Translations under genes and position numbers: made by a program | Notes under the pieces: model-generated | Database searches by the model: none | Seen by the model: the letters and a program-made list of their open reading frames with translations, nothing else | Told to the model about the DNA's origin: nothing | Source of the DNA: a virus | Virus record (IMG/VR): IMGVR_UViG_3300036863_000049 | Span: 1 to 64,000 of that record | Direction: 5' to 3' (one strand) | DNA: 64,000 nt | Part shown: one piece after another, positions 5,078 through 63,625 of the stretch | How the letters are laid out: each line of letters opens with the position of its first letter | How positions within the stretch are numbered: the stretch's first letter is position 1

Positions 5078-5088
5078 GAGACACGACA

Positions 5089-7264: not shown

Positions 7265-7304
7265 AATCCCCCCGCTCGCACCACGCGGCCGGGGGATTTG
7301 CTTT
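7265..7304 (+). terminator. Terminator after the toxin gene, copy 1
   Basis: Stem AATCCCCC (7265-7272) with GGGGGATT (7291-7298) followed by TGCTTT. It lies between convergent operons: the rightward toxin operon and the leftward tail gene ending at 7408. Confidence 0.55.
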
Positions 7305-7407
7305 GTGTGTCGAAGCAACGACGCCACAGGAGCCATTCTGCCGATCTCGGCGTACCAGGACAGCGCTCCGACCGTCGCAGCGGGCAGGCTGGGGCGCTCA
7401 TAGCCGC

Positions 7408-15545: not shown

Positions 15546-15757
15546 GGCCGCACCGCCGATCGCGTAGTCATAGCGTAGTCATAGGGTGCGATACAAGGCA
15601 ACACGTTGCAACAGCCACGCGTTCGTTTCGTGCATCCTGTTGCGAGAGGGCAACAGCCTCGTATACCCCGCAATTCCCCATCCGGTAATAGATATGTAAC
15701 AGTGTACCCCGTTGTGTTGCGGCGTTTTGAGGTAATGTGTAGTCGTAGCGTAGTCAT
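15542..15757 (-). CDS. 71-aa ORF between integrase copy 2 and primase
   Basis: The ORF is joined by ATGA overlaps to the integrase stop on one side and the primase start on the other, suggesting a coupled operon. The protein is basic and Cys-containing (LRGIRGCCPLATGCTKRTRGCC). However, both ends fall in a 20-bp direct repeat, so the segment may instead be a site for integrase. Real coding status is open. Confidence 0.35.
   Translation of the reverse strand: MTTLRLHITSKRRNTTGYTVTYLLPDGELRGIRGCCPLATGCTKRTRGCCNVLPCIAPYDYAMTTRSAVRP
15562..15757. other. Candidate attachment/arm-site region next to integrase copy 2
   Basis: Direct repeats CGTAGTCATAGCGTAGTCAT (15563-15582) and TGTAGTCGTAGCGTAGTCAT (15738-15757) bracket about 155 bp that also holds inverted GCAACA/TGTTGC motifs. 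The right repeat is also present at the end of integrase copy 1 (32-51). Location at the 3' end of int is common for attP. No tRNA sequence is present here. Confidence 0.35.
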
Positions 15758-16968: not shown

Positions 16969-17176
16969 GTTGCGCCTCCTGTTGCTCCACGACGGCCAGG
17001 AAGCTCGCGATGCGGATGCGGAGCGCCGAGCCGATCTTGAGCGACTCGATGCGCCGGCTGCGGACGGCCGGATAATAATGCCGGTACCACGTCACGCGGT
17101 CGATACCCATGATCTCGGCGAGTTCGCCGGGGCTGGCGTAGGCACGGCCGGCGTATTTTTCAGGGAGAACGATCAT
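16958..17176 (-). CDS. Excisionase-like HTH protein, copy 2
   Basis: 72 aa; same as the protein at 1252-1470 except near residues 3-4 and at its last residue. The boundary between diverged and identical DNA falls inside this gene, at 17169/17170. Confidence 0.65.
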   Translation of the reverse strand: MIVLPEKYAGRAYASPGELAEIMGIDRVTWYRHYYPAVRSRRIESLKIGSALRIRIASFLAVVEQQEAQHGA

Positions 17177-17409
17177 CAGTTCAACCCCTCCCTTGGCGGC
17201 ACGAACCCGCGCACGCGCACGTACTCGCCGATGCGCTTGACCCATACCCTGGTGCCCGGCGGCATCGGCTCGGGCGCTTCGCCCGGCAGCAGATCGCGCT
17301 CGTAGCCGGTCGCGTCTGGGTGCTGCATAAAATACTCGTAATCGACATCCTGCGACGGGTCGGAGTCTATCGGCGGCGCGATGATGACCGGAACATTTCT
17401 GCCTCTCAT
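17176..17409 (-). CDS. Small unknown protein, copy 2
   Basis: 77 aa, identical to the gene at 1470-1703, with the same coupled start and stop. Confidence 0.6.
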   Translation of the reverse strand: MRGRNVPVIIAPPIDSDPSQDVDYEYFMQHPDATGYERDLLPGEAPEPMPPGTRVWVKRIGEYVRVRGFVPPREGLN

Positions 17410-17543
17410 CGCATACCGCCGCTTTCCAGCACGGCCTTCCAGCGGCGCAGTACGAAGCGCACGAGCAGGGGCGGTCGATGGTCGATGAGGAAGATCACCG
17501 CGTCGAGCAGGTGACTGCGGGTGCGATCGAAGGGTGCGAACAT
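17406..17543 (-). CDS. Small unknown protein, copy 2
   Basis: 45 aa, identical to 1700-1837; GGAGG 5 nt before the ATG at 17543. Confidence 0.5.
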   Translation of the reverse strand: MFAPFDRTRSHLLDAVIFLIDHRPPLLVRFVLRRWKAVLESGGMR

Positions 17544-17561
17544 AAATCCTCCGTTATGGGC

Positions 17562-17616
17562 TTGACATAGCAGCCGTCTTGCCCCATAATGGAGGGTGTC
17601 GCGCCCGTCCATTATG
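17562..17616 (+). promoter_or_regulatory. Rightward promoter with operator palindrome, copy 2
   Basis: TTGACA 17562-17567, 17-bp spacer, CATAAT 17585-17590; inverted repeat 17585-17593 with 17608-17616 over the -10 and start. Confidence 0.65.
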
Positions 17617-17659
17617 AGACGTTGAGAAAGCCGCCAGCCGCCGTAGGGCGGCTTTCTCA
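17597..17659 (+). ncRNA. Candidate small RNA, copy 2
   Basis: Same promoter-to-hairpin interval as 1891-1953, with no ORF between start and terminator. Confidence 0.4.
17624..17658. terminator. Bidirectional hairpin terminator, copy 2
   Basis: 12-bp perfect stem 17624-17635 with 17647-17658, overlapping the stop of the RHH gene. Confidence 0.55.
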
Positions 17660-17857
17660 TTGTGTCCCTGATATGACTGAGCGAGCATCCGCGCCGTCTT
17701 TTCCTGACCGCGGATGCTCGCTCTCTTGCAAAACCCTACGAAGCGCGATGCGCACGGCCTCCGAGGCCGAGACGCCCTCGCGCTGTGCCAACGCTGCGAT
17801 CGCCTCGCGATCGCCCGGCATCACACGCATGGTCCAAAAAACGTCTCTCCACGCCAT
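17657..17857 (-). CDS. Ribbon-helix-helix protein, copy 2
   Basis: 66 aa, identical to 1951-2151, including the 15-bp inverted repeat within its 3' codons (17679-17693 with 17709-17723). Confidence 0.7.
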   Translation of the reverse strand: MAWRDVFWTMRVMPGDREAIAALAQREGVSASEAVRIALRRVLQESEHPRSGKDGADARSVISGTQ

Positions 17858-17926
17858 GGGTCTGCTCCTTCGTTCGTACGCATTGTAACATATGAATCCC
17901 TTTCGATCAAGTAGCAATCCGATCGA

Positions 17927-18457
17927 TTATTCGATCACTTTTGTGCCTGCTCTACCTTGCAACTTTTTACTTTTGCTTCCCCATCCCCCTGCGGCGTCAT
18001 AAGCGGCCTTGACGGTTCGCAGGTAGCTATAACTGAAGCCGGTTTCTTCGGCGAGTTGGCGCAGGGTGATGCGGCTACCTTGCGCCCGTGATCGATAGTA
18101 GCGCTCGATGACTTCCTCGGCGCTTGGCTCGGCCGTGCGGCGAATATCGTGGGCACGGAGTTCGAGCGGGTTTACTTCCTCTTCGAAAATCGGTCGCCAG
18201 AAGCCGGCCCATGCGGGCAACTCGAACATCGTGATACGAGTCCCGTTGCCTTGCTTGGCGAAGATAATGCTGAGTACGGCAAAGTCTTGGCTCTCCGTAT
18301 AGCCATCAATACGATAGCCGTCGTCGGTGAAATCATCGCGCCAGGTTACCCCCTGCGGGGCGCGACGACGCGCCTGGATCGCAGCCGCGGCTGCGATCCA
18401 CCACCAGTCACTGATGGGGAGGGATGCCCGGTGTATGATATATGGCTCGCTCATCAC
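17927..18457 (-). CDS. HTH protein of unknown function, copy 2
   Basis: 176 aa, identical to 2221-2751 (Trp-rich N terminus, C-terminal HTH, basic tail). Confidence 0.6.
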   Translation of the reverse strand: MMSEPYIIHRASLPISDWWWIAAAAAIQARRRAPQGVTWRDDFTDDGYRIDGYTESQDFAVLSIIFAKQGNGTRITMFELPAWAGFWRPIFEEEVNPLELRAHDIRRTAEPSAEEVIERYYRSRAQGSRITLRQLAEETGFSYSYLRTVKAAYDAAGGWGSKSKKLQGRAGTKVIE

Positions 18458-18494
18458 GCCCTCAGCAGCTCAGCGGATACTGCGCCCGATTATA

Positions 18495-18656
18495 TCACCG
18501 CTTCTGCTTCAGCTGCGCGGTATATTGCGTCCAGGCCAACAAGAAGCGCCGCGCCGTGTCCTGCTCCGTCGGCCCGCGGGCGTCGCGCAGCTGCTGGGTG
18601 AACTTCGCCACCATGCGCTGGGCGTGGTCAAGCTCGGCCTGTTCGTCGGATGTCAT
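18495..18656 (-). CDS. Small 53-aa protein, copy 2
   Basis: Identical to 2789-2950; ATGA-coupled to the 107-aa gene. Confidence 0.5.
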   Translation of the reverse strand: MTSDEQAELDHAQRMVAKFTQQLRDARGPTEQDTARRFLLAWTQYTAQLKQKR

Positions 18657-18976
18657 TGGCGCATCATCCGTCTCGCCTGGTCGACTCGCTCATCCTCGGC
18701 TCGCTGCTTTCGCCAGATCTCAAAATCACGCAGCTGCTTTTCTTCCTGGGTCAGCACTTGCGTAACGCGCGTGTTGAGCTGGGGATGCGCGGACTGGTAG
18801 GGTGGGATCGTGTCGCTCACGTCGTCCTGCGGCGCAGCCACGTCGAGCAGGCCGGCCAGCGTCTGCATATCCTGATCGTTCGCGTCTGTCCACCTCAGGC
18901 CCGCGTGGGCAGTCAGCGCTTTCAAGTAGTGACGGACGATAGAAGCGGCGTGTTCGCCTGGTGGTAAAATAGCCAT
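18653..18976 (-). CDS. Small charged protein, copy 2
   Basis: 107 aa, identical to 2947-3270. Confidence 0.55.
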   Translation of the reverse strand: MAILPPGEHAASIVRHYLKALTAHAGLRWTDANDQDMQTLAGLLDVAAPQDDVSDTIPPYQSAHPQLNTRVTQVLTQEEKQLRDFEIWRKQRAEDERVDQARRMMRQ

Positions 18977-19040
18977 TGTCGTAACCTCTCACGTCAGGTT
19001 GCGGCCAGCCGGGCGGGTGCGACCACACCGCGCCCGGCAT

Positions 19041-19505
19041 TTAATTCTCGTTGACGGCCTTGAACTTCTCAAGCGGGTGCGGGCGTTCTGGGTAGACTGG
19101 CGCCGGTCGCTCTGCTCGGATCTCGCGAATGAGCGCAAGCACGGTATTGCGATCGCCGCCGACATAGGTAGCGATCTGGTTGGCGGAGCTGCGATAGGCG
19201 CCGCCCTTGCGCTGCACTGCCAGTACGGTGATCAACTCCGTGTCGGTCAACTCGCGCCCGATCCGTGGCATTATGTCATCGCCCGAAGCGATGGTATGCC
19301 CGTCCATACCAGTATCCCATACTGGTATACATACCGCTTCCATATCAGGCGAAATTGGCGGCGCGCTCTGAGGGCGTGACATAATGACGCCGCCTATTCG
19401 GGCGCTCACCTCGGGCCACCAGGCCCTTATGATGCCCGCCGGCACAAGCACGACGGCGGCGATCGCCAGTCCGCACATCACGACATCCCCGAGTGTTTGG
19501 AGCAT
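19041..19505 (-). CDS. Membrane-anchored protein with HTH-like C terminus, copy 2
   Basis: 154 aa, identical to 3335-3799; one N-terminal membrane segment and a C-terminal winged-HTH-like region. Confidence 0.55.
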   Translation of the reverse strand: MLQTLGDVVMCGLAIAAVVLVPAGIIRAWWPEVSARIGGVIMSRPQSAPPISPDMEAVCIPVWDTGMDGHTIASGDDIMPRIGRELTDTELITVLAVQRKGGAYRSSANQIATYVGGDRNTVLALIREIRAERPAPVYPERPHPLEKFKAVNEN

Positions 19506-19520
19506 GGCGCACCTCCGAAT

Positions 19521-19997
19521 CTAGCCCGACTCCCATAAATACTCAGACAGGCTGGCGAGCAGTAGCCCGATCGTGAGCGCTAGCAGGAACGCCGCACTAG
19601 GGGTCATCGCTGCCTGCACGTTCATCACCTCGGCGAGCATCCTACCGACATCCGTTTGCGCCAGCCGGCCCATATATGGGTACAGCCCGCCCGCGTTCAG
19701 GAGGCCGTCAACGAACGTGACGACCAGGCCGACAACCGCCAGCCGGCCGCCATTGCGCCGCATCAGGAATCGCCACAACGGACGCTCGGCGATCGTCAAG
19801 AGCCATTGTACACCACCAGCCAGCAACGCGCTCACAAGCCAGCTGGCGCCCGGCATCGCCCGCGCAAAGAACAGGTAGGTAGTGAATGTGCCGAGCAGCC
19901 AGGCAACGACCGCGGCCACGCGGTGCCATGCGACCTGCGACCGCGCACGCTCGGCTGGCTTGCCATCGCGTAGCGGCTCTGAATGAACGGTGCTCAT
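19521..19997 (-). CDS. Polytopic membrane protein, copy 2
   Basis: 158 aa, identical to 3815-4291; about four membrane segments. Confidence 0.6.
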   Translation of the reverse strand: MSTVHSEPLRDGKPAERARSQVAWHRVAAVVAWLLGTFTTYLFFARAMPGASWLVSALLAGGVQWLLTIAERPLWRFLMRRNGGRLAVVGLVVTFVDGLLNAGGLYPYMGRLAQTDVGRMLAEVMNVQAAMTPSAAFLLALTIGLLLASLSEYLWESG

Positions 19998-20227
19998 TCT
20001 GGCACCTCCTCCATCATGAGGAGGTCGCCGGTCCCGCACTCGAAGTAATTACACAGCCGCTCGATCACATCCTTCGGGTACTCGGTTAGTTCGTTGTTCG
20101 CCAGCGCGTAGATCGTATAGGTGCTGATGCCTGTGGTGCGTGCGATGCTCCGCAACGTGACCCGGCGCCCGTCGCGCTGCGACTTTTGCGCGACCAGCAC
20201 TAGTAAGTTGCTTTTCAACTTTCTCAT
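19994..20227 (-). CDS. XRE-family HTH regulator, copy 2
   Basis: 77 aa, identical to 4288-4521. With two identical regulators and operators, the two tandem units should be controlled together. Confidence 0.8.
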   Translation of the reverse strand: MRKLKSNLLVLVAQKSQRDGRRVTLRSIARTTGISTYTIYALANNELTEYPKDVIERLCNYFECGTGDLLMMEEVPE

Positions 20228-20261
20228 GCCTCCTTTCTACAACGCATCGGTCTTACCGTCA

Positions 20262-20341
20262 AGTATAGTGTATCGTTCGTAGTCTGTCAAGTAATGCTTG
20301 ACAGAAGATCGTGAATATGCTATAATCTGTCTTGTAAGACA
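20262..20341. promoter_or_regulatory. Divergent promoter pair with palindromic operators, copy 2
   Basis: Rightward TTGACA 20298-20303 / TATAAT 20321-20326; leftward TTGACA 20290-20285 / TATACT 20267-20262; both spacers 17 bp. Palindromes at 20284-20304 and 20328-20341. Confidence 0.85.
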
Positions 20342-20402
20342 CGACAAAGGCGCGCCCCGGATGGTACCCGAGACGCGCCAATAGCAGACAAGGAGAACGC
20401 CC

Positions 20403-20783
20403 ATGTCTACCACCCTCAGTTTACCACCGATCGAGATCATGGCCGCGGCCGCGGCCGAACTCGCCGAACAGGCCCAGATCGCCGGCGATCGTCCCCTCGT
20501 CAACGCGCTCAACAAAGCCATGCTCCAACTCCACGAAGGCACTGCCCCGGTTCCGACCATCGGCGGCTGGCTGCTGGAGAGCCGCACGCGTCCCGGTACG
20601 GTTCATCGGATTAGCCTCAGAAATGGGTGTTCGTGCGAGGCCGGATGCAACGCGCGCACCTGCTGGCATGTGCAGCTGATGACCATTATCGAGCGCGCCG
20701 CCGAACAGTACACAATGCCCGCGCTGCACATTCAGGCCAAAGCCGAGATTGACGCCGACTTGACCGCCAGCGCCGCTCCATAG
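20403..20783 (+). CDS. SWIM zinc-finger protein, copy 2
   Basis: 126 aa, identical to 4697-5077 (CxC...CxH signature). Confidence 0.7.
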   Translation: MSTTLSLPPIEIMAAAAAELAEQAQIAGDRPLVNALNKAMLQLHEGTAPVPTIGGWLLESRTRPGTVHRISLRNGCSCEAGCNARTCWHVQLMTIIERAAEQYTMPALHIQAKAEIDADLTASAAP

Positions 20784-20794
20784 GAGACACGACA

Positions 20795-21043
20795 ATGCCA
20801 CTCACTCACAACCAGCGCGCCATCCTCGCGGCCATCGAAGCCGGCCACATCACGATCCGCGATATCGCGCAGCACACCGGCATCGGCTCGACGGCGACGG
20901 TTCACACGAATTTGAGGAAGCTCGAAAAGGGCGGCCACTTGATCCTGCACAAGAACGGCGGCCATACGCAGGTTGATGCTGGCCGAGACTTCGCCCGAGG
21001 ATGGGACACCGCCGCGCGGCTCGCTGGCAATCCCGACGCCTGA
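20795..21043 (+). CDS. Winged-helix DNA-binding protein, copy 2
   Basis: 82 aa, identical to 5089-5337. Confidence 0.65.
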   Translation: MPLTHNQRAILAAIEAGHITIRDIAQHTGIGSTATVHTNLRKLEKGGHLILHKNGGHTQVDAGRDFARGWDTAARLAGNPDA

Positions 21044-21115
21044 ACCGAATCCAACCAGGCCGCGCCGTCGTTTTCGTCGGTGTAGCGGCCACTACAACCC
21101 AAAGGAGCAACGACC

Positions 21116-21802
21116 ATGATCACCCACAACGAAGAGACCGGATGGGGCTTCACCCTCGGCAAGCAACCCTACGTCGGCTATGCCAGCCGCGAAGAAGCCG
21201 CAACCGCTTTGTACGACCTGGAGCGCGGTATCATCTGCCGCGCAACCGACGCAGCCCTAGCAGGAAACACGACGGACGATGAGATCGCGATCCTCGACTG
21301 GATAGACAAGCAGGCCGCGGCCCTGCCCGGCAACGTGATCGTCACCGCCGCCGCGCGCTATGACACGAACGACGACGCCGTGACACCGACTATCCGCCCC
21401 ACACCCGCCGGCCTGGCCATCGGCTATGACAGCGACGAGGGCGGCCCCGCGGCCATCACGGAGGTCTGGCACGCATCATCCGCGCCGCTCACGATCGTGC
21501 TGACCGACGATAATGAGTTGTGGGTGCTCAGCCGCGATGAGTGGGGCAGCCCGGCCCAGATCGTCACCGTCGAACGCCTCGCTGATGCGGAGTGCCCCTG
21601 CACCGATTATCGCTGCGGCAATGTGACCCTCGAAGTCCTCGACGACCGTCACGACGATCCGGCCGGCGCCGGTCTGACCGTCTACAACTTCGGCGGCGAC
21701 TGCCGCAGCCTGGCAAGCGCCGAGCAGGATGCGCGCGATCTGCTCACGCTGCTCGGTGATGAGCGCGTCAAGGCAGCGATCGACGCCCGCATGAGTGCCT
21801 AA
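21116..21802 (+). CDS. Unknown 228-aa protein, copy 2
   Basis: Identical to 5410-6096. Confidence 0.6.
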   Translation: MITHNEETGWGFTLGKQPYVGYASREEAATALYDLERGIICRATDAALAGNTTDDEIAILDWIDKQAAALPGNVIVTAAARYDTNDDAVTPTIRPTPAGLAIGYDSDEGGPAAITEVWHASSAPLTIVLTDDNELWVLSRDEWGSPAQIVTVERLADAECPCTDYRCGNVTLEVLDDRHDDPAGAGLTVYNFGGDCRSLASAEQDARDLLTLLGDERVKAAIDARMSA

Positions 21803-21835
21803 TCATAACCGCTACCCTACAAGGAGACAACGACC

Positions 21836-21928
21836 ATGCTTTCGCTCACCATCCTGACCATCTCATCCGTGCTCTCGGGGTTCGCCATCGGCGTCGCGTT
21901 CGCACGCTACTACCGCCGCGCCGCCTAG
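21836..21928 (+). CDS. 30-aa membrane peptide, copy 2
   Basis: Identical to 6130-6222; strong RBS and a single membrane segment. Confidence 0.5.
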   Translation: MLSLTILTISSVLSGFAIGVAFARYYRRAA

Positions 21929-21944
21929 CTCGTCCGTCGTCTCG

Positions 21945-21981
21945 CGCCCCGGTTCGCATCGTTGCAGCCGGGGCGTTCTCC
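21945..21981 (+). terminator. Rho-independent-like terminator, copy 2
   Basis: Stem 21945-21952 with 21968-21975, then TTCTCCTT. Confidence 0.6.
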
Positions 21982-22091
21982 TTGCCCGCTGCGCAACTTA
22001 GAGCGCAATTAGTACGTCTGTCTCATTGTCACGTGTGGTATCATATATGTTGGATGTATTGCGCGAGCAATCACTGAGCGAAGGGATTCCA

Positions 22092-22448
22092 ATGACTACG
22101 CCGGCGCCAGAAGAGACAAACGGCGGCGATATGCCCGAAGATCTGGGGCTCGCTCTCCCGATTGAGTGGTATATTCCAGAAGGTCTTGCAACGCGCTACA
22201 CGACGAATTACGTAGTTCAACATACGGAACACGAGTTCATCATCTCTTTCTTTGAGGTACCCACACCGATCTTGCTGGGCCGGCCCGACGAGGTGCGCGA
22301 CGCCGCTAAGAAAATGGAATCAGTTCGCGCTACATGTGTCGCGCGCGTGGTTATTGCCGGCGGTCGGATGCCCGATTTCGTGCGAATTCTACAGGAGAAC
22401 CTGGAAACGTACCGCGCCAGATTTGGACAGGAGGAGCACGATGAGTGA
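22092..22448 (+). CDS. DUF3467-like protein, copy 2
   Basis: 118 aa, identical to 6386-6742. Confidence 0.65.
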   Translation: MTTPAPEETNGGDMPEDLGLALPIEWYIPEGLATRYTTNYVVQHTEHEFIISFFEVPTPILLGRPDEVRDAAKKMESVRATCVARVVIAGGRMPDFVRILQENLETYRARFGQEEHDE

Positions 22449-22677
22449 GCAGGTACTTCGGCTCCAGTTTGGCACAACCCAGAGCACTGGCTATGTGGTA
22501 TCACTTCGCGCGGCCGTACGCGCAACAACAGCCTTATGGGATCTCGAGGAGGCATCAGAGCGCCGCTGGCAGGAGACTTTCGCGGCCTCCCAAGACTTTC
22601 TAGCAGAACTAGGGGACAAGGCGCTCGCCGACTTTTTGGCGGGTAATACAGAAGTCCTCGATCCCGATAACTTGTGA
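22441..22677 (+). CDS. Putative antitoxin, copy 2
   Basis: 78 aa, identical to 6735-6971; coupled to the toxin gene. Confidence 0.5.
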   Translation: MSEQVLRLQFGTTQSTGYVVSLRAAVRATTALWDLEEASERRWQETFAASQDFLAELGDKALADFLAGNTEVLDPDNL

Positions 22678-22937
22678 TCTCGCATATCACCTCGGATTTT
22701 CGCGCCGCCTTTGCGCGGCTGCCTGAGCACGTGCGGCGGCAGGCACGTGCTGCCTACCATCTATTTTGTCAGGACCCCCATCATCCCAGCTTACAATTTA
22801 AGTCGATAGTACCCTCTATCTACTCAGTGCGTATTGGCCCGCATTACCGCGCCCTTGGAAAACGCCGTGAAGATACCATTATTTGGTATTGGATCGGTTC
22901 GCATGCCGATTATGACCGCCTCTGGAAACGCCAATAA
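22674..22937 (+). CDS. RelE/HigB-like toxin, copy 2
   Basis: 87 aa, identical to 6968-7231; GTG start within the antitoxin stop. Confidence 0.75.
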   Translation: MISHITSDFRAAFARLPEHVRRQARAAYHLFCQDPHHPSLQFKSIVPSIYSVRIGPHYRALGKRREDTIIWYWIGSHADYDRLWKRQ

Positions 22938-22970
22938 AATGGAGCGCACCGCCCCGCCCCCGCCCGCAAC

Positions 22971-23010
22971 AATCCCCCCGCTCGCACCACGCGGCCGGGG
23001 GATTTGCTTT
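22971..23010 (+). terminator. Terminator after the toxin gene, copy 2
   Basis: Stem 22971-22978 with 22997-23004, then TGCTTT; it separates the unit from the convergent phage tail operon. Confidence 0.55.
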
Positions 23011-23113
23011 GTGTGTCGAAGCAACGACGCCACAGGAGCCATTCTGCCGATCTCGGCGTACCAGGACAGCGCTCCGACCGTCGCAGCGGGCAGGCTGGGG
23101 CGCTCATAGCCGC

Positions 23114-24268
23114 TCATGCGCTCAGCCGCGCGAGTAGCGCATCAACACTGTCACTCGCCGCCGGCTCCAACGTCACACCAATGCGATCGCCACTCACTGA
23201 GCACGTCACCCGCTCGACGTACTGGCGTGTCGCCGCATCATAGGCGGTTGAAACGGGGCTGGCATCAAGAAGCCCGATCTCCTGGTACATCGTATCGGGC
23301 CGGACCTCCCACGGCGGAACCAAACTGCCATCTGGTGTGTAGACCGCATGGCTTCCGAGCGGCGAAACATAGGTAGGGATGGCAGGCGTCGCGCCAGCCC
23401 ACTTACGGAACGTGAGCAGCCGCCCCTCCAGGCACATCAGCACCCAGCGATCAACGCCGTCCCCCTGTGCGACCAGCGCTTCGATCTTATCCTGGTATGG
23501 CGTGAGTGGTGCGATATACTCCGTATCACTTACCCCCGTTGCTCCGATCTGTGCCGTTGACGTGCTGAGGAATGCGTTCGTCACGCCGATGCCGACGCCG
23601 GAGGCCGCGATGAGCGCACCGATCTGCGTATTCGTCGCCGTAAACGTCGTGCTGGTGCGGCTGGTGAGCACCCAGCCGAGCGTTGCGTACCAGCCGCGGA
23701 AGAGCAGATCCACGCGCACATCACCGCCGGCCCCCGTCGCGATCTCGGTACTCGGCGTCTGCGGCGGATTTTTGTACTTGGCGAGCACTTGCGTGGCCGC
23801 GTTCGTCGCCGCTGTTAAGGATGAGCCGCCGAGCGCGACGACGAGCTGCTTTGTCCCATAGGTCGCGATGCTCGAGGCGTCACTAACAACGCTCGCAGTC
23901 GTTCCAATGCCCTGATCATCTGAGTAGCGCGGGCGAATGGAGTTGTACATTTTCTCCAGGCTGATGCTGCGCTTCCGCCCGCCGAGTGAGATGCTGATCT
24001 CGGACAAATACCCTTCCCAGATCGTCTCCGTATCCGGCCCGGTCACGACCGTCGAGCGCATCAGCCAGTTGTTGAAGATGTCGATCGCCTCGTCTAAGTC
24101 GGCGGCGAACGATGTGCGCATTGACTCGAAGCCGCCGCGAGAGGCGATCGTGTGCTCGTAGCTCTCCGCGCGGCTGGCCAGGTTGATGCCGGTAGGCGTG
24201 GTGCCCGGTACGCCCGCCGCGCCTCTTTCCGTTAATGGGATAGAGACGCCGATCTCAGTCAGTAGCAC
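23114..24268 (-). CDS. Tail-hub (Tal-like) protein of the phage
   Basis: 384 aa, last gene of the phage late operon, following the Dit-like gene but separated from it by a cargo gene on the other strand. The N-terminal quarter (about 1-97) differs from the copy at 7408-8562, while the rest is identical. Family role: trimeric hub closing the tail tube, contacting fibers or host. Assigned by position after tape measure and Dit rather than by a hallmark motif. Confidence 0.72.
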   Translation of the reverse strand: MLLTEIGVSIPLTERGAAGVPGTTPTGINLASRAESYEHTIASRGGFESMRTSFAADLDEAIDIFNNWLMRSTVVTGPDTETIWEGYLSEISISLGGRKRSISLEKMYNSIRPRYSDDQGIGTTASVVSDASSIATYGTKQLVVALGGSSLTAATNAATQVLAKYKNPPQTPSTEIATGAGGDVRVDLLFRGWYATLGWVLTSRTSTTFTATNTQIGALIAASGVGIGVTNAFLSTSTAQIGATGVSDTEYIAPLTPYQDKIEALVAQGDGVDRWVLMCLEGRLLTFRKWAGATPAIPTYVSPLGSHAVYTPDGSLVPPWEVRPDTMYQEIGLLDASPVSTAYDAATRQYVERVTCSVSGDRIGVTLEPAASDSVDALLARLSA

Positions 24269-24739: not shown

Positions 24740-26095
24740 TTATCCCGACCCACGCAGCGTCTTATAGAGTGGCGCGTGTGTGACGGTGACCACCGTGGTA
24801 TCGGTTTTCAGATGCGCCCACGATGTTGCGGTCATCCATGCGACATATAAACTCGCGCCGGTAATGCCGACCGGCAGTCGACCGGCGTAGTAATCCACCG
24901 CCTGCGGCTTGTTATCCGCTGTGGTGATGTTCTGAACCAGTGGGGGATTCTGCGGCAGCCATACCGATCCGTTGCGGTTCTGCGCTGTGATCGTTTGGAG
25001 CGCTTGCCCGGAAGGTATCGTGGTCTGGTAGGGTGTCAGCTTGGACCATGTGTAATACAGGCACACCTCGATATAGTCGAGGGTCACCCCTACTGAGGTC
25101 GTGCCATCGGCCGATATAATATCAAATTGCAATTTCAGATCGACCGTCGTCGGAAGCGGCGTCTGAAAGACGAGGGGCGATAGGTAGCCAAGGTCCACGA
25201 GATTCGCCGCCGAGATATTCTGCACGAGCACCCACGGCCCGAACACCTGGCGGCTCATTGTGGCGTAGCGCATGAGACACGCCTGGCCGTTCGTGACGGC
25301 CGACGTATGCGCGAGGATGCGGATATTCAGTCGCGGATCGGTCCGTATCGTCGTGATGTCAATCGCGCTCGGTTCAGGACTTAGCGTCTGTAGGCTAATT
25401 CCCGATCCCGTGCCGGTGTTGGCCTGGTACGTTCGCTGGGCGACGACCCCGAGGTAGACATCGATGAGCGTGGTTGTCGTCGGCCTGCCAAACTTCACAT
25501 TGAGCGGCGATCCCTCATCGCGCAAGTCGCCCGTGAGACTGCCCAAGCTCTGGGTATTATTGTTCGCGCCGGTGCCGGTGTTCGTGAAGGTTGCTGCGTT
25601 AATCAGCGTCGTCAGGCTTGCCGCCCCAAAGAACGGGTAGCGTGTGAGGATGAGTTCGGCGTCAATATCTGTCCAACCCTCCCACGCCTCAAAGCCGCTT
25701 TCTGTTTCCGTCACCTCGCGCACAAACCCGCTATAGATCTCGGTGTACATGATTGTGCTGCTGCCGGTCGGCTGCACCGCCATCACTGCCGGTTGCGGCG
25801 TCAGCGCGAGCTTCAGTTCTTGCAGACGTGTAACTGCGTTCTCATGGTCCGAGCCGCGCACACTGATCGGGATACGTTCAACCACATTATCATAGCTGGA
25901 GTACGCGAGCCGCCGACCTGGGGTAAACGGCGGGCCGCCGCCCCAGACCGGCTGTGGCTCGGGCGCGTTCAGCGACCAGCCTCGCCGGATAGCGAACGGC
26001 GTGGTACTCGCTGCCGTCGCTGCGCCGCCTGCTGTGGGCGTGCCGCTGCTATTGACCAGGTGGATGCCGCCGATCGTGACGATAGGGAGCGCCAT
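24740..26095 (-). CDS. Distal-tail (Dit-like) protein of the phage
   Basis: A 451-aa protein immediately after the tape measure (start overlaps its stop by one base), the canonical Dit position. Beta-rich with conserved blocks PFAIRRGW, YDNVVERIPIS and FEAWEGW shared with the unit's copy at 8564-9922. Predicted to form the ring at the tail tip on which the hub assembles. Confidence 0.75.
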   Translation of the reverse strand: MALPIVTIGGIHLVNSSGTPTAGGAATAASTTPFAIRRGWSLNAPEPQPVWGGGPPFTPGRRLAYSSYDNVVERIPISVRGSDHENAVTRLQELKLALTPQPAVMAVQPTGSSTIMYTEIYSGFVREVTETESGFEAWEGWTDIDAELILTRYPFFGAASLTTLINAATFTNTGTGANNNTQSLGSLTGDLRDEGSPLNVKFGRPTTTTLIDVYLGVVAQRTYQANTGTGSGISLQTLSPEPSAIDITTIRTDPRLNIRILAHTSAVTNGQACLMRYATMSRQVFGPWVLVQNISAANLVDLGYLSPLVFQTPLPTTVDLKLQFDIISADGTTSVGVTLDYIEVCLYYTWSKLTPYQTTIPSGQALQTITAQNRNGSVWLPQNPPLVQNITTADNKPQAVDYYAGRLPVGITGASLYVAWMTATSWAHLKTDTTVVTVTHAPLYKTLRGSG

Positions 26096-28935
26096 TAGAG
26101 GCGCCCTCCCGTGCGGCGCCGGATCTCATCCATGACCATCTGCGCGATCTGCTGTGGGTTCGTGCCCATCGGTGGATTGATGACGATCGCCCCGGCTCCG
26201 AACGTCGCGCCGCCCTTACCCGCAAGCGCCAGCCCGCCCGCGTTCGGCGACGGCTCACCCGCGCGGAAGCCGTTTCCACCGCTCCCAGCACCAGACCAGC
26301 CGCCCGCGCCGGTTGCGGCGTTCAATTGCGCCAGAAGCTGATAGAGCATATTGAATGCGGCCTGCGCCGCCGGCGAGGTCTCGTCAGTGATCGTGATGGC
26401 ATCCAGGAGTGCTTGAATCTGCCCCACCAGCCCGCTTGTGCCGGAGGTCGCGGTGGATGCGCGCTGAGCGGCGCCTTGCTGCTCAGCGGCCTGTGCCTCG
26501 TTGATATAATTGATCTGCTGCGCGAGCGAAGCGGCTTTCGCGTCATCCCCCGCGGCTTGCGCGGCGTTGAAGTCTTGCTGTAGCTTCGCCAGTTCGAGGA
26601 TCTGACTAGAGCGCATCTTGAAGTATTTCGCCGCCTCTACCGGGTCTTGGATCTTGTCGGTCTCCTCCTTTGCCAATGCGAGCGCATTCTGCACACCGCT
26701 CTGCATATCTGCCGCTAGTTTACTGACAGCATCGATGTTGCGCGCTGCCTGGCGATCGATCGATGCCGTTGCGTCAAAGGCGCCGGCTAAGGCATCCGAG
26801 ACCTTTGCGGCCATGTCCTGCGCCTGTTGCACGAGGTCGGTGCCCATCCCCGCGAGCGCGGCTACAAGATCTGGCCAGAGTGACTGAAGCCCCTCGAGGA
26901 TACCGAGCACCAGCGGAGTGCCTACGGCATCGGCCCACACCTGACTCGGCGAGCTGATACCCCACGCATCCTCGATCGTGTGGGTTAGCTGCTTGGCCAT
27001 GTCCTCGGCCTGACTGAGCAAGTCACCGAACGCCGATTCCATCCCTTCCTGTAGTCCACCGATCAGCAGCTCGCCGAGACCTGATGCCGGGTCAACCGCG
27101 CCCTCTTGAAAGGCGCCACTGAGATCGAGACCGGTCTGATCCATCGCCCTCGTAAGGAGGTCACTCGCCATGCTTATCCCGGCGACAATACCCTCGATGA
27201 TTGGACGCCCAACCTCGATCGCCATCCGCCGCGAGGGAGACGAGATGCCGAGCGACTCCTTTGCCGCGTTCAGCGCGTCCGTGGCGATGTCCGAGAGCGC
27301 ACTATAGAGTTGCCCGGCGGCGTTATTGACCCCCTGAATAATGCCGTTGATGATGTCAGCGCCTATCTGGACCATCTGCCCCGGCAACGCCTCCAGCACG
27401 CCGACGATCTGCCCGGCGACGGTCTCGGTAATACTGACCAGGTTGTTAAAATTACTTACCCAGGTTGATGCGATTTCAGAGAGTGTCGTCCCGAACAGGC
27501 CCGCGATCATACTCAGGAAGCCGCCGATCGCGCTCCCGATCTGTGAGACGAACGACGCCGACATGCCTTGAATGGTTGACCAGGCACCGGACCAATCGCC
27601 CTGGATGGCTTGCAACGCCGCAGTCAGCAGCCCCTTGATGAGCGTCAGCGCCGCGCCGATGACGTTGCTGATGACCGTCCACGCGCCAGAGAGGATATTC
27701 TGAATATCGGCGCCGTGAGCCTGGATAAATCCGGCGATGGCTTGCAGCGCGGGCACGATCGTCGCCTGGATGAGCTGCATCGCGAGGCTAATGATCTCGC
27801 TGATTTGCGACCATGCCGACTGTGCAAAGGCCGTAATTTCGGCGCCGTGAGCCTGCCAGAACTGCGCAACAACTTGCAACTCGGCGGCGACAACCTGGGC
27901 ATAGGCCTGTGCGAGTGCGATAACGGTCTGTATTACCGTCTCGATCGTTGCCCCCATCCCCGATGCACTGTCCCCCGCCTGGGTAAACAGCCCCGAGACG
28001 GTCTCGATCGCCGGTTGCAACGCGGCCCACGCTGCGAGCAAGGCCGGGATCGCGGTGTTGGCAATGAAGTCGAACGCCACGCCGATGCCGGTGGTTATCG
28101 CATCGCCGATCGCCTGTAGCCCTGCCTGCGTTGCGGGGTCGGCAAGCCAGGCGGCGAACGCGGCAGCGGCGGCCTCAACTGCTGGCGCGACGGTATCGTT
28201 CAGAAAGCCCGCGAGCTGGCCCAGAAGCGGCAGAAGCGCTGTACCAAGCGCTTCTTTGGCCTCACCCAAGCGGTCGGTGAATTGTGCCCAGCCGCCATCC
28301 GCTTTCGCGGCGGCTTCTGCTGAGCCGCCGAACTCTTTATTCAGCTCGGCAAGGATGACGCCCTGAGCGCCGGCCACGTCGCCAGCCTCTTGCATCGTCT
28401 GGATCTGCGCCTTTTGCTCATCGGTGAACGTCACACCGATACGGGTCAATGCTGATATGCCCTTGATTGGGTCATTTAATGCCTTACCGAGCTGAATGGC
28501 GGCGTCCTTCGGCTCACCGCCCATCGCCTGGGCCAGATCCACGCTCATCGCCGTCGCTGCCTCAAGCGATTTGCCTTTAATATTCGTAAAGGTTAAAAGA
28601 AGGTTTTCAGACTGCTCAATTTGATCGTCGCCAAAGAGCGACTTACCAGAAGCCGCCGACAGGCTACTCGCGTAGTCAGCGACTTGCTGCGCGCTGACAC
28701 CCGCCGCGCCGCCCGTCGACTTGATGACCGCCTCGGTCTGCGCAAAGATTTGCCGCGCCTGTCGCGCGTCGCCTACGGCGCTGATGAGCGTGGCACCGAC
28801 TGCCGCGATGCCGCCCGCGGCCACACCCAACGCAACCCCGCCCAGGCTCTTGAGCGTGCCGCCTAAAGAAGAGAGACCCTTTTCCGCGTCTCCCTTCATC
28901 TCCACGAGTAATTCAAGCGTCGCCTGGGATGCCAT
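26095..28935 (-). CDS. Tail tape measure protein
   Basis: 946 aa, the longest phage gene, helical and Ala/Gln-rich with a hydrophobic region near residues 30-55 (LGGVALGVAAGGIAAVGATL) and repeats of amphipathic helices such as WSQISEIISLAMQLIQ. LGISSPSRRM and WGISSPSQVW are typical tape-measure tail motifs. The length suggests a long flexible siphovirus tail. It follows the chaperone frameshift ORF by 4 nt. Confidence 0.9.
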   Translation of the reverse strand: MASQATLELLVEMKGDAEKGLSSLGGTLKSLGGVALGVAAGGIAAVGATLISAVGDARQARQIFAQTEAVIKSTGGAAGVSAQQVADYASSLSAASGKSLFGDDQIEQSENLLLTFTNIKGKSLEAATAMSVDLAQAMGGEPKDAAIQLGKALNDPIKGISALTRIGVTFTDEQKAQIQTMQEAGDVAGAQGVILAELNKEFGGSAEAAAKADGGWAQFTDRLGEAKEALGTALLPLLGQLAGFLNDTVAPAVEAAAAAFAAWLADPATQAGLQAIGDAITTGIGVAFDFIANTAIPALLAAWAALQPAIETVSGLFTQAGDSASGMGATIETVIQTVIALAQAYAQVVAAELQVVAQFWQAHGAEITAFAQSAWSQISEIISLAMQLIQATIVPALQAIAGFIQAHGADIQNILSGAWTVISNVIGAALTLIKGLLTAALQAIQGDWSGAWSTIQGMSASFVSQIGSAIGGFLSMIAGLFGTTLSEIASTWVSNFNNLVSITETVAGQIVGVLEALPGQMVQIGADIINGIIQGVNNAAGQLYSALSDIATDALNAAKESLGISSPSRRMAIEVGRPIIEGIVAGISMASDLLTRAMDQTGLDLSGAFQEGAVDPASGLGELLIGGLQEGMESAFGDLLSQAEDMAKQLTHTIEDAWGISSPSQVWADAVGTPLVLGILEGLQSLWPDLVAALAGMGTDLVQQAQDMAAKVSDALAGAFDATASIDRQAARNIDAVSKLAADMQSGVQNALALAKEETDKIQDPVEAAKYFKMRSSQILELAKLQQDFNAAQAAGDDAKAASLAQQINYINEAQAAEQQGAAQRASTATSGTSGLVGQIQALLDAITITDETSPAAQAAFNMLYQLLAQLNAATGAGGWSGAGSGGNGFRAGEPSPNAGGLALAGKGGATFGAGAIVINPPMGTNPQQIAQMVMDEIRRRTGGRL

Positions 28936-58309: not shown

Positions 58310-59181
58310 CTATGTGGCGGAACATTCCAGAATCATACCGTAACCAGATCGTCGTGAGCGATGCGCTTGACTATCTGCGCAGCCTGCCTGATGCCAGCGT
58401 GCCGCTGTTCCTGTTCAGCCCGCCGTACAATCTCGGCAACAGCAGCGGGGGCGGAATGCCGGGCGCAAAACGACAAGGGCACTATGCACCGGATTTGCCC
58501 CTCTCCCGGCGCGGCGGCCCATACCATGCCGCAATGGACGGGGGCCGCCGCGCCGGGAAGTGGGACAGTGGATCGCTGGCAGATGGTTACGGCGACTATA
58601 GCGACGGGCTACCGTGGGATGAGTATGTTCCCTGGCAACACGCAATCCTGCGTGAGTGCTGGCGCTGCCTAACCGCCGGCGGCGCGATCTTCTACAACCA
58701 CAAATCACGAGTTCTTGACGGCGTGTTGCTCGATACGATCACGTTCGTGCCGGAAGACTTGCCCATTCGCCAGCGCATTATTTGGGCACGCGCCGGCGGG
58801 GTGAACTTTTCACCGTCGTTTTATTGTCCGACGCATGAAGAGATCCTCGTGATCGCGCGGCCTGACTTTCGGCTCAAAAGCAAAGGCGCGTCGGGTGTCG
58901 GAACAGTTTGGAGCGTCACGCAAGAAACGAATACTTGGCATCCCGCGCCGTTCCCACTTGCGCTAGCGGAGCGGGTTATCGAGACGGTCATGCCGCCGTT
59001 CGTTTGTGACCCGTTCATCGGCTCTGGTACGAGCGCCGTCGCCGCCGTCCGGTGTGGTGTGGGCTTCATCGGGTGCGACCGCAGCGCCGCCTACGTCGAG
59101 CGAGCGCGAAAGCGCGTAGCGAGCACACAGCCGATTAGCCGCGCCCTTGTTGAGGCACTAGGGCAGGACGTGCTGCTATGA
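58306..59181 (+). CDS. Orphan DNA methyltransferase (N4/N6, beta type)
   Basis: 291 aa from GTG 58306 (or ATG 58312). Motif IV FSPPYNLG near residue 38, then the target-recognition region, and motif I CDPFIGSGTSAVAAV near 238 with FIGCDRSAAYVERAR. The order IV...I is that of beta-class enzymes. No restriction gene is adjacent, so self-protection or regulation is likely. Confidence 0.88.
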   Translation: MTMWRNIPESYRNQIVVSDALDYLRSLPDASVPLFLFSPPYNLGNSSGGGMPGAKRQGHYAPDLPLSRRGGPYHAAMDGGRRAGKWDSGSLADGYGDYSDGLPWDEYVPWQHAILRECWRCLTAGGAIFYNHKSRVLDGVLLDTITFVPEDLPIRQRIIWARAGGVNFSPSFYCPTHEEILVIARPDFRLKSKGASGVGTVWSVTQETNTWHPAPFPLALAERVIETVMPPFVCDPFIGSGTSAVAAVRCGVGFIGCDRSAAYVERARKRVASTQPISRALVEALGQDVLL

Positions 59182-60178: not shown

Positions 60179-60517
60179 ATGGAGCCACGCGGCGTCACAC
60201 TCAAGAAGGCAGGCGAACTGATCGGCGGCGACAAGCCGCTGTCGGTGCGTACCGTGAGTGCGATGATCGCGCGTGGCGAACTGGAAGCCTACGGCGCGCG
60301 AAAGGGGCGACGTGTGACGACGCGCTCGATCCGCGCCTATCAGGACGGAAAGCAATGGCAAAGCGAAAGCGCGAGCGGCGCAAGCCTGGCAGTGGCTACA
60401 CCACCGCCGCGCCGAACCAAACGTGGAGCGCGTTCTTTCCGAAGCGACCAAGCGGATACCACGTCCGTAAAGGTTTCCGCACCCGCGCGCTTGCCGAAGC
60501 ATGGCTTGATTCGCTAG
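60179..60517 (+). CDS. Excisionase-like HTH protein
   Basis: 112 aa. VTLKKAGELIGGDKPLSVRT, then VSAMIARGELEAYGARKGRR is a HTH_17/excisionase pattern. The last about 55 residues overlap the integrase gene in another frame and look less native, so the functional part may be residues 1-60. Likely the directionality partner of the adjacent integrase. Confidence 0.6.
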   Translation: MEPRGVTLKKAGELIGGDKPLSVRTVSAMIARGELEAYGARKGRRVTTRSIRAYQDGKQWQSESASGASLAVATPPPRRTKRGARSFRSDQADTTSVKVSAPARLPKHGLIR

Positions 60518-61518
60518 GCCAGCAGCGCGCCGATAAACAGGATGTATCCAGCGGACAGCAGCGCGTCGGCGTCTGGGTCGACCGCTGGATCGAACGCAGC
60601 GGCCGTGAGCGCGGGTGGAAAGCGAAGATGCTCGCGGATGTGCTCTATAAACTCGGCTATGTGAAGCCGTATCTCGGCGCCGTTGCGCTCTCCGATGTCC
60701 TACCCGATGATGTTGACGCGATGATGGATGACCTCGCGCACGACCTTGCCGAGAACACGATCCGCCAGATCCGCAATTACCTCTTTCAGGTTTTCGAGAG
60801 CGCGGTCAAGCGCCGCTATATCGCCTTCAACCCGGTCATCAAGCCCGAGCGCCGTAAACGTGCTGAGCAGAAGCCCACCCAGCGCTTGACCGTAGCAGAG
60901 ACGAGGCGCGTACTGCGTGAAGCTGAACCGTCGTTCTACAGCTTGGCCTGGTGGCTGGTCTTCACGCTCGGGCTGCGCGCTGGCGAGGTATGCGGCCTCA
61001 GATGGGGAGATATCGACCTGGATAAGGCGACGGTCAGCGTCCTCCAGGAGTGGACGGACTTGCGCGGCACGCCATACCGAGACACGCCCAAAGGCAGCAA
61101 GACGCGGCTGCTGCCGTTACCACGCGCTCTGGCCGCGCCTCTCGCGGCACACAAACAGGACTGCGCCCGCCGCGCCGCGCAAGGCCAACAGAAGGGCTAC
61201 TGGCAAGAGAACGGGCTGGTCTTTCCCGGCCGGGGCGGTCGACCAATGCACACGACCAGCCTGCGCCACCAGCTCAAACGCATGACCGACGCCTGCCACT
61301 TGCCGCCGATTACCGCGCACGAGGGGCGCCACACCGCGGCGAAGTTTTACACCGATGCGGGCGCGACACAAGAGCTTACCGGCGCCATTCTCGGCCACGG
61401 CCCGCGCACGATCACCGGGCACTACGCGCCGCACGACGCTGAGGTGCTACGGCCGTGGGTGGAAAAGGTGTATCGGGCGCTGGCGGGGGAGGTGGAGCGG
61501 ATTGAAAAAGAGGCTTGA
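60355..61518 (+). CDS. int: Tyrosine recombinase/integrase of the phage
   Basis: 387 aa, not closely similar to the two integrases on the left. Arm-binding N terminus (YHVRKGFRTRALAEAWLDSL); catalytic residues: Arg in LGLRAGEVCGLRWGD, H-x-x-R in THEGRHTAAKF read here as HEGRHT, GHGPRTITGHYAP with the nucleophile Tyr. It probably uses the tRNA-Thr-like site 1.1 kb downstream. Confidence 0.9.
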   Translation: MAKRKRERRKPGSGYTTAAPNQTWSAFFPKRPSGYHVRKGFRTRALAEAWLDSLGQQRADKQDVSSGQQRVGVWVDRWIERSGRERGWKAKMLADVLYKLGYVKPYLGAVALSDVLPDDVDAMMDDLAHDLAENTIRQIRNYLFQVFESAVKRRYIAFNPVIKPERRKRAEQKPTQRLTVAETRRVLREAEPSFYSLAWWLVFTLGLRAGEVCGLRWGDIDLDKATVSVLQEWTDLRGTPYRDTPKGSKTRLLPLPRALAAPLAAHKQDCARRAAQGQQKGYWQENGLVFPGRGGRPMHTTSLRHQLKRMTDACHLPPITAHEGRHTAAKFYTDAGATQELTGAILGHGPRTITGHYAPHDAEVLRPWVEKVYRALAGEVERIEKEA

Positions 61519-61550
61519 CAGATGTGTACCGTAGGTGTATAATAGGTGTA
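61515..61550 (+). promoter_or_regulatory. Consensus promoter with phased repeats for the RHH gene
   Basis: TTGACA 61515-61520, 17-bp spacer, TATAAT 61538-61543. GTGTA occurs at 61524, 61535 and 61546, exactly 11 bp apart, spanning spacer, -10 and start codon. The expected start of transcription coincides with the ATG at 61550, so the mRNA would be leaderless. Confidence 0.75.
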
Positions 61551-61762
61551 TGAAACGAACGAACATCAACCTATCCGACGATGGCCAGCGGGCTATACTG
61601 GTCATCCGCGAGCGTTATGGCTTAACGAGTGACACGGCGGCGATCCATTTTGCGCTGCGGGAAGTCTCGCGGCAAATCGAGATAGAATATCTCAAGCGAA
61701 ACATCGCCGCCCAGCGCGGCGGCACGAAAGGATACGAGGATGAACATTCGACAAGCACTTGA
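61550..61762 (+). CDS. Ribbon-helix-helix regulator
   Basis: 70 aa; KRTNINLSDDGQRAILVIRE, then RYGLTSDTAAIHFALREVSR is an RHH fold. Probably binds the three GTGTA repeats of its own promoter, whose one-turn spacing suits cooperative RHH dimers. The basic C terminus overlaps the next gene. Confidence 0.7.
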   Translation: MKRTNINLSDDGQRAILVIRERYGLTSDTAAIHFALREVSRQIEIEYLKRNIAAQRGGTKGYEDEHSTST

Positions 61763-61990: not shown

Positions 61991-62563
61991 ATGGCATCGC
62001 AACAAAAAGCACACAAGACAAGGCATGAACGTAAGCTCATCATGTTTGAGCCGGGCGTTGTCTATCTTGCCTACGGTGAAAACTGCTACGTGCGCCCAGA
62101 GCTTTATCATGTCCACCATGCCTACAAGATCGGGGCAACGCGCAAGCTGCCGGGGGTGCGTATCCGTTCTGCATGGTCCAGTGGATGGGAGTTTCGGCGC
62201 AATATCCGGCTCCTTCACACCATCCAGGTAGACAATATGCGAGTTGTGGAGATGATGTTTCACATGCGTTTTGCCGATCGATCGGCTGTGCCAATGCAGC
62301 CCTGGCGTGAGTGGTTTGTGATCGATGATAATGTGCCGCTGATTTGTTCATATCAGTCGATCAATGTAGCCGCTGCACTCACCGATCTGTCTGGCGATGG
62401 TGCTTCGTGCGACTGGTGGCGGAGCATGACCATCAAAGACCGCCGTAAAGTAACCCTGTCACTTTGGCAGCATCCCGCGTTGCATGTGGTCTGTTCGGCG
62501 GTCGGTAACAAAGTGCCCGGTAACATCAAAATACGCACAAAAAATACAATACAGGAGGACTGA
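61991..62563 (+). CDS. GIY-YIG/T5orf172-like protein
   Basis: About 190 aa (start uncertain; ATG 62042 is an alternative). MFEPGVVYLAYGEN, AYKIGATRKLPGVRIRSAWS, VDNMRVVEMMFHMRFADRSA and WREWFVID follow the T5orf172/MUG113 pattern of the GIY-YIG superfamily. A nuclease role is possible. Confidence 0.6.
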   Translation: MASQQKAHKTRHERKLIMFEPGVVYLAYGENCYVRPELYHVHHAYKIGATRKLPGVRIRSAWSSGWEFRRNIRLLHTIQVDNMRVVEMMFHMRFADRSAVPMQPWREWFVIDDNVPLICSYQSINVAAALTDLSGDGASCDWWRSMTIKDRRKVTLSLWQHPALHVVCSAVGNKVPGNIKIRTKNTIQED

Positions 62564-62684
62564 TACCGCGTCTGAATGGGATAGGACGGGCAGCAGCGGT
62601 CATTCGTCTGCTGTTTCGTAAACAGCAGGTCAAGAGTTCAAGTCTCTTCACCGGCTCCACGTAATTCCCCATTCAGACGCGGTA
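62564..62684 (+). other. Attachment-site-like element: tRNA-Thr(CGT) 3' half in a 17-bp inverted repeat
   Basis: 62610-62659 folds as the 3' half of a tRNA: anticodon arm GCTGT-TTCGTAA-ACAGC, variable AGGTC, T arm AAGAG-TTCAAGT-CTCTT, acceptor strand CACCGGC, T, then CCA. No matching 5' acceptor (GCCGGTG) lies upstream, so it is not a full tRNA. A perfect 17-bp inverted repeat (62564-62580 with 62668-62684) encloses it. Most likely attP or a prophage end for the integrase at 60355. Confidence 0.72.
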
Positions 62685-62711
62685 CAGAGTAATCTCTGTA
62701 CTGCGTCTTTT
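62675..62711 (+). terminator. Rho-independent terminator overlapping the inverted-repeat arm
   Basis: 15-bp stem (62675-62689 with 62694-62708, one G-U pair), TAAT loop, then TTTT. Its 5' strand shares bases with the downstream arm of the 17-bp inverted repeat, so the two foldings exclude each other. Confidence 0.75.
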
Positions 62712-62757
62712 CGTGCCTGGTCTGTTCAATGGTCTGTTCGCGACCGAAAAGGAGACA

Positions 62758-62958: not shown

Positions 62959-63005
62959 CCCACCACCACCCGCCCGCGCCAGCTGCGCGAGAATGAGGAG
63001 AATGG
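62959..63005 (+). repeat. Leader repeat, copy 1
   Basis: CCACCACCACCCGCCCGCGC-CAGCTGCGCGAG followed by a GAGGAGA ribosome site. The same arrangement recurs at 63311-63358 before the next gene. Confidence 0.55.
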
Positions 63006-63358: not shown

Positions 63359-63625
63359 ATGGAAGAAGTCCAGATGGCAATCGAAACGGAGTGCGCGAAC
63401 TGCGGCGTCGTAGGGCAATGCTACAACGACGGCGAAGCATACATCTGCTTCAATCGTGAGATGTGCAAGAAGAATCAGCGCATAGGTGAGCTAGAGGCAC
63501 GCGAGCGGCGGCTGCGCGAGGCGTGTAAGACGGCTATCGAGATGGACTGGCATGGTATCGGCGCACCACATGTCTATGAGCAGCTACGCGCCGCGCTCGC
63601 GCCCGAAGAGGAGCCGCCCGCATAA
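63359..63625 (+). CDS. Small Cys-containing phage protein
   Basis: 88 aa; CANCGVVGQC, then C30 and C36 may bind zinc, followed by a coiled segment (QRIGELEARERRLREACKTA). Unknown. Confidence 0.5.
   Translation: MEEVQMAIETECANCGVVGQCYNDGEAYICFNREMCKKNQRIGELEARERRLREACKTAIEMDWHGIGAPHVYEQLRAALAPEEEPPA

What the first reader, a model, noticed from the sequence alone, without database searches (positions are those of the whole stretch)
62564..62711. tRNA-Thr half inside a long hairpin that competes with a terminator
The 3' half of a tRNA-Thr(CGT) including CCA lies inside a 17-bp perfect inverted repeat, and the downstream arm also forms a 15-bp terminator stem. As DNA this is probably the attachment core; as RNA it can switch between two exclusive folds. 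If it is attP, the phage DNA here is not integrated at this site, since phage-like genes continue to the right.
Basis: partly seen in the sequence, partly recalled or inferred. Interest (0 to 1): 0.7.

Follow-up and report, generated by a model that had tools for sequence, protein, structure and literature searches.

The report
Phage attachment site with masked terminator
This is the spot where a little-known temperate phage most likely joins its host's chromosome inside a threonine tRNA gene; it carries a spare tRNA end with its own transcription stop signal, and a long hairpin that exists only while the phage is not integrated and could switch that stop signal off.

Summary
The sequence observation is correct. 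62608-62659 is the 3' half of a tRNA-Thr(CGT), from anticodon stem to CCA, with no 5' half. It lies inside a 17-bp perfect inverted repeat (62564-62580 / 62668-62684). The right arm overlaps by 10 nt a 15-bp terminator stem (62675-62708), the strongest terminator candidate in the 68.6-kb viral contig. The site is almost certainly attP: a tyrosine integrase lies about 1 kb upstream; the core is a 9-bp palindrome around the anticodon; a 10-bp motif found only three times in the contig flanks it at 62487, 62718 and 62730, as arm-type sites should. Phage genes lie on both sides. The host tRNA (attB) was not found, so integration itself is untested.

The folds compete for 10 nt only, and a hybrid holding the terminator plus the inner stem is 1.9 kcal/mol weaker than the full hairpin. 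Predicted occupancy of the terminator base is about 1-2% with the left arm and over 99% without it. Integration would separate the arms, so the hairpin can exist only in free phage. A DNA role for the repeat (protein-binding sites) remains a serious rival. attP with a terminator is known; a repeat that could mask it was not found elsewhere.

The parts
60179..60517 (+). probable excisionase-like protein (HTH_17), start of the integration cassette
   Evidence: Pfam PF12728 E=1.9e-4, below Pfam's own cut-off; tblastx match to the same place upstream of int in relative L028
60355..61518 (+). tyrosine integrase, 387 aa
   Evidence: phrog_1 integrase 6e-51; PF00589 2.9e-16, PF22022 3e-9; R208, K246, H322, R325, H348, Y358 in the conserved catalytic columns
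61515..61543 (+). sigma-70 promoter TTGACA-17-TATAAT reading towards attP
   Evidence: 12/12 consensus; same promoter at the same place in the relative: TTGACG-17-TATAAT in L032
61550..61762 (+). small ribbon-helix-helix-like protein
   Evidence: weak VapB-like match E=0.023; tblastx match to the relative L028
61955..62563 (+). GIY-YIG-like protein (T5orf172/MUG113) between int and attP
   Evidence: PF13455 4e-5, PF10544 5e-4; a GIY-YIG-like ORF lies at the same place in L032 (read from sequence)
62487..62509 (+). putative arm-type pair P1 (TGGTCTGTTC, 62487) and degenerate P2 (62499)
   Evidence: motif occurs exactly 3 times in 68.6 kb, all within 255 bp around this site; 20-nt 80% direct repeat with 62718
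62564..62580 (+). left arm of the 17-bp inverted repeat (candidate antiterminator arm, or DNA-binding site)
62608..62628 (+). putative crossover core: CTGCTGTTT-CGT-AAACAGCAG, palindrome around the anticodon
   Evidence: 9-bp perfect inverted repeat
62608..62659 (+). 3' half of tRNA-Thr(CGT), anticodon arm to CCA
   Evidence: sequence; match to annotated tRNA-Thr; Rfam tRNA 21.5 bits, below cut-off
62668..62684 (+). right arm of the 17-bp inverted repeat
62675..62712 (+). intrinsic terminator (15-bp stem, one G-U, TAAT loop, T run), 5' arm shared with the right arm
62718..62740 (+). putative arm-type pair P3/P4 (TGGTCTGTTC at 62718 and 62730)

Best explanation
The site is the attP of a temperate tailed phage whose tyrosine integrase targets the anticodon region of a host tRNA-Thr(CGT) gene. 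Recombination in the anticodon arm would join the host's 5' half to the phage's 3' half, so the lysogen keeps a working tRNA-Thr, ended by the phage's own terminator at 62675-62712 (inferred). [quoted passage not shown] The long hairpin can therefore form only in unintegrated phage, where transcripts of the rightward early operon cross attP. There the left arm, made first, takes up the 5' arm of the terminator and should let the operon continue into the genes right of attP. In the lysogen the tRNA transcript has no left arm, so the terminator works. In short, an integration-dependent terminator. Shown: the anatomy, the computed energies, and phage genes on both sides. Inferred: the crossover point, arm-site binding, the restored tRNA, and the switch. 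My confidence is about 0.95 for attP, 0.7 for a terminator serving the restored tRNA, and 0.4 for the antitermination role; the figure below is for the account as a whole, with attP weighing most.
For: Integrase with complete catalytic residues about 1 kb upstream, oriented towards the site. Core is a tRNA 3' half with perfect anticodon and T stems and CCA, plus an extended palindrome that does not fit the tRNA's own D side. Arm-type candidates occur only around this site, in direct pairs about 12 bp apart, as in Giles and L5 (PMC3203893). Phage genes to the right: collinear homologues of 64.6-66.8 kb in L029, tail-gene copy at 67808-68639. The terminator is the longest in the contig and sits inside a rightward gene block (about 50.4-67.0 kb) whose only other candidate is near its end, 66689. 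Energies: full hairpin -66.7, hybrid -64.8, terminator with left arm free -54.6 kcal/mol; base of terminator stem 0.6-2.4% paired with the left arm present, against 99.9% without. As the transcript grows, the long stem is 98% formed before the terminator's 3' arm exists.
Against: No attB was found, so the target tRNA is inferred. The hybrid fold is only 1.9 kcal/mol worse, so branch migration could still allow termination. No close relative with the same site exists in the data searched; the relative phage L032 has a different att sequence without an obvious masked terminator, so nothing shows selection on the hairpin. L032's own core-flanking inverted repeat contains its arm motif, which favours a DNA role. 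The host tRNA may have its own terminator.
Confidence: 0.55

Rival explanations
1. The inverted repeat works as DNA. Its arms are binding sites for integrase or excisionase, in opposite orientation on the two sides of the core, and the overlap with the terminator is a by-product.
For: In relative L032 the repeats around the putative core (1758-1769 / 1910-1921, 12 bp) contain that phage's arm motif. Cluster K phages have inverted arm-type sites flanking the core, and CrimD also has a terminator between core and P3 (PMC3203893). The arms share GTCTG with the putative arm motif TGGTCTGTTC.
Against: The window already has a separate, better arm motif in direct pairs. Seventeen perfect bp is longer than the 11-bp arm-type sites reported for CrimD (PMC3203893). 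A DNA role does not by itself explain the 10-nt overlap with the terminator stem.
Confidence: 0.35
2. Retroregulation like lambda sib. The long hairpin in transcripts that cross attP is cut by RNase III, and the upstream integrase mRNA decays in free phage but not in the lysogen, where the arms are apart.
For: Same order as lambda (from my own knowledge): int, then att, then an RNA element that integration removes. The stem is 17 bp perfect and its fold is far below shuffles. sib control of lambda int is cited in PMC6379469.
Against: Two or three genes and a consensus promoter (61515-61543) lie between int and the hairpin. The hairpin closes a multiloop and is not a simple RNase III helix; in lambda sib lies wholly beyond attP.
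Confidence: 0.15
3. The terminator simply ends the int / RHH / GIY-YIG operon and the left arm is an accident or a relic of a local inverted duplication.
For: A conserved promoter drives the RHH and GIY-YIG genes towards the terminator. The contig has another 17-bp inverted repeat (58504-58558).
Against: About 0.003 such repeats expected per contig (extrapolated), and this one lies on both sides of the att core and on the terminator arm. None of the other terminator candidates in the loci held (25 in all) has such a competitor.
Confidence: 0.1

Closest known systems
attP sites of mycobacteriophages L5, Giles and CrimD (tyrosine integrase; PMC3203893)
   Same: core shared with a host RNA gene (tmRNA for the K1 phages such as CrimD), paired arm-type repeats on both sides, tyrosine integrase nearby; CrimD also has a stem-loop terminator between core and P3
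   Different: no inverted repeat overlapping the terminator is described there; here attP lies 3' of int, not 5' as in the K1 phages
Lambda int-attP-sib retroregulation (Schindler and Echols 1981, cited in PMC6379469)
   Same: an RNA element near att acts on transcripts only while the phage is not integrated
   Different: sib lies beyond attP and is an RNase III site (own knowledge); here the two arms bracket the core and overlap a terminator
KplE1 intS / argW (PMC2951348)
   Same: integrase-tRNA arrangement links integration and transcription
   Different: control there is by an intS promoter overlapping attL, not by termination
Terminator/antiterminator attenuators (general knowledge)
   Same: two RNA folds compete for one arm of a terminator
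   Different: the proposed input is DNA recombination separating the arms, not a ligand, tRNA or translation

Membership tests
tRNA-targeting attP of a tyrosine integrase | core identical to the 3' part of a tRNA gene | tested here: met
   62608-62659 is a tRNA-Thr 3' half with CCA; identity to the actual host tRNA could not be tested
tRNA-targeting attP of a tyrosine integrase | tyrosine integrase gene close by | tested here: met
   60355-61518
tRNA-targeting attP of a tyrosine integrase | arm-type repeats on both sides of the core | tested here: met
   TGGTCTGTTC at 62487, 62718, 62730 only; binding not shown
tRNA-targeting attP of a tyrosine integrase | phage DNA on both sides in the unintegrated form | tested here: met
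tRNA-targeting attP of a tyrosine integrase | matching attB in a host genome | tested here: inconclusive
   no match in genome contigs or viral contigs; host unknown
complete tRNA gene | full cloverleaf over the family cut-off | tested here: not met
terminator/antiterminator switch | two folds competing for one arm of the terminator | tested here: met
   10 nt shared; difference 1.9 kcal/mol; computed, not measured
terminator/antiterminator switch | covariation or conservation in relatives | tested here: inconclusive
   no close relative of the site found
terminator/antiterminator switch | measured change of read-through | not testable with these tools
   needs transcription assays

The most novel reading that the evidence does not exclude
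An integration-dependent terminator: one arm of an antiterminator lies on each side of the recombination core, so that inserting the phage into the tRNA gene physically separates them, turning a terminator that is masked in the free phage into the active terminator of the restored host tRNA.
Probability: 0.35. Interest if true: 0.7.

Novelty: new variant of a known kind. Interest (0 to 1): 0.42.

Why it matters
A phage that carries a tRNA end with a terminator puts a stop signal into its own operon. If the inverted repeat masks that signal only before integration, site-specific recombination itself acts as the switch, without any added regulator. This could be tested with a few DNA constructs and could be looked for in other tRNA-targeting phages and islands.

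Tried and rejected
Close relatives by integrase, GIY-YIG and promoter pattern: none with this site; an alignment of distant integrases was too diverse for a scan. Complete or permuted tRNA gene: rejected, no 5' half. Junction with host DNA: rejected, phage genes follow. The same hairpin design in integrase loci of other phages and plasmids and other loci held: not seen in 25 terminator candidates. Three of my own queries failed on reading frame or phrase length.

Full report
What is there. The window is the first 64,000 bases of a 68,639-bp viral record. At 62608-62659 on the + strand lies the 3' half of a tRNA-Thr(CGT): anticodon arm, variable loop, T arm, acceptor strand and CCA. BLAST places it on annotated tRNA-Thr genes of Synechococcus phages at 89-91% identity. 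The 5' half is missing; ARAGORN finds no tRNA and Rfam tRNA scores 21.5 bits, under its cut-off of 29. Only one copy exists in the record. The half tRNA lies inside a 17-bp perfect inverted repeat, 62564-62580 and 62668-62684. The right arm runs into a 15-bp terminator stem, 62675-62708, followed by a short T run. A Markov model gives about 0.7 repeats of 13 bp per contig, so about 0.003 of 17 bp by extrapolation, although one other 17-bp repeat exists at 58504-58558.

Why it is attP. A tyrosine integrase with all catalytic residues lies at 60355-61518 and points to the site, behind an HTH_17 protein that could be the excisionase. The putative core, CTGCTGTTT-CGT-AAACAGCAG, is a palindrome centred on the anticodon, extended by two pairs beyond the tRNA stem, which would suit a crossover in the anticodon arm. 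The motif TGGTCTGTTC occurs exactly three times in 68.6 kb, at 62487, 62718 and 62730, with a degenerate fourth at 62499. This gives a direct pair on each side, as reported for L5 and Giles (PMC3203893). Phage genes lie on both sides: 64.6-66.8 kb has collinear homologues in L029, a viral contig with a 63% identical DnaB helicase, and 67808-68639 is an 86% copy of the phage's own tail gene.

A related phage. Record G010 and its near-identical counterpart L032 carry the same cassette: int (24% identity), a promoter TTGACR-17-TATAAT at the same place, a small RHH-like protein and a GIY-YIG-like protein; G010 also has a portal protein 49% identical to this phage's. There the att region has other arm repeats (AGAACACA at 1730, 1755, 1949, 1961 of L032) around a possible core at 1820-1836, GGGGTTT-AGG-AAATCCC, which resembles the anticodon arm of tRNA-Arg(CCT). 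The phage also carries a complete tRNA-Arg(CCT) next to it, 1614-1688. That core is my tentative reading. The 12-bp inverted repeat around it contains the arm motif, which is the best support for a DNA role of such repeats.

Does it switch? Folding 62564-62708 gives -66.7 kcal/mol for the full hairpin, -64.8 for a hybrid with the complete terminator plus the inner stem, and -54.6 for the terminator with the left arm free. At equilibrium the base of the terminator stem (62675-62677) is paired with its terminator partner in 0.6-2.4% of the ensemble with the left arm present, and the terminator forms at 99.9% without it. In growing transcripts the long stem is 98% formed when position 62685 is reached, before the terminator's 3' arm exists. 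The terminator is the longest in the contig and sits inside a rightward gene block of about 50.4-67.0 kb whose only other candidate is near its end, 66689. These are equilibrium energies at 37 C with default parameters; real cotranscriptional folding was not modelled.

Reading. I take the site to be an attP (0.95). The tRNA half and its terminator would restore and end the host tRNA-Thr in the lysogen (0.7). Because the arms lie on opposite sides of the core, integration separates them, and the hairpin can exist only before integration. The most likely use is to mask the terminator in the free phage so that the early operon is not cut in two (0.4). The main rival is that the arms are protein-binding sites in DNA (0.35). 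A sib-like role in decay of the integrase message is a third (0.15). CrimD already shows a terminator between core and arm sites (PMC3203893); KplE1 shows integrase control through a promoter overlapping attL beside a tRNA (PMC2951348); lambda sib is the closest idea (PMC6379469). I found no report of a repeat that could mask an attP terminator, but the library holds open-licence papers only and my searches were few.

Limits. The host and attB were not found. There is no close relative of the site, so no conservation test. Binding, crossover, termination and the restored tRNA are inferred.

Noticed in passing
2-8514, 15708-24220 and 67808-68639: An 8.5-kb tail-gene block is present twice at 98.4% identity, 15.7 kb apart, with a third partial copy at 86% at the record's right end (67808-68639 lies beyond the window, in L002); the neighbouring genes 8742-9924 and 24918-26097 are 72% alike. 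Either a real multiplied tail module or an assembly of several variants.
   Followed up: partly
L032 1614-1688 and 1820-1836: The related phage carries a complete tRNA-Arg(CCT) next to a putative att core resembling the anticodon arm of the same tRNA; it may replace the tRNA that integration would break.
   Followed up: partly
61515-61560: Perfect consensus promoter with GGTGTA direct repeats in front of an RHH-like gene, kept in L032; looks like an autoregulated operon.
   Followed up: partly
62966-62992 and 63496-63525: Short stretches match L029 at 93-96%; GC-rich intergenic pieces of this kind recur before start codons of small genes to the right of attP.
   Followed up: no
58504-58558: A second 17-bp perfect inverted repeat, inside a DNA methylase ORF.
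   Followed up: no
L029 10033-11172: An IS605 OrfB / TnpB-like gene lies in the early region of a related phage, which has no detectable relative of this integrase.
   Followed up: no
L017 about 1400-1650: A stretch with several tRNA-like pieces in relative G010, only 15.4 bits with the Rfam tRNA model.
   Followed up: no
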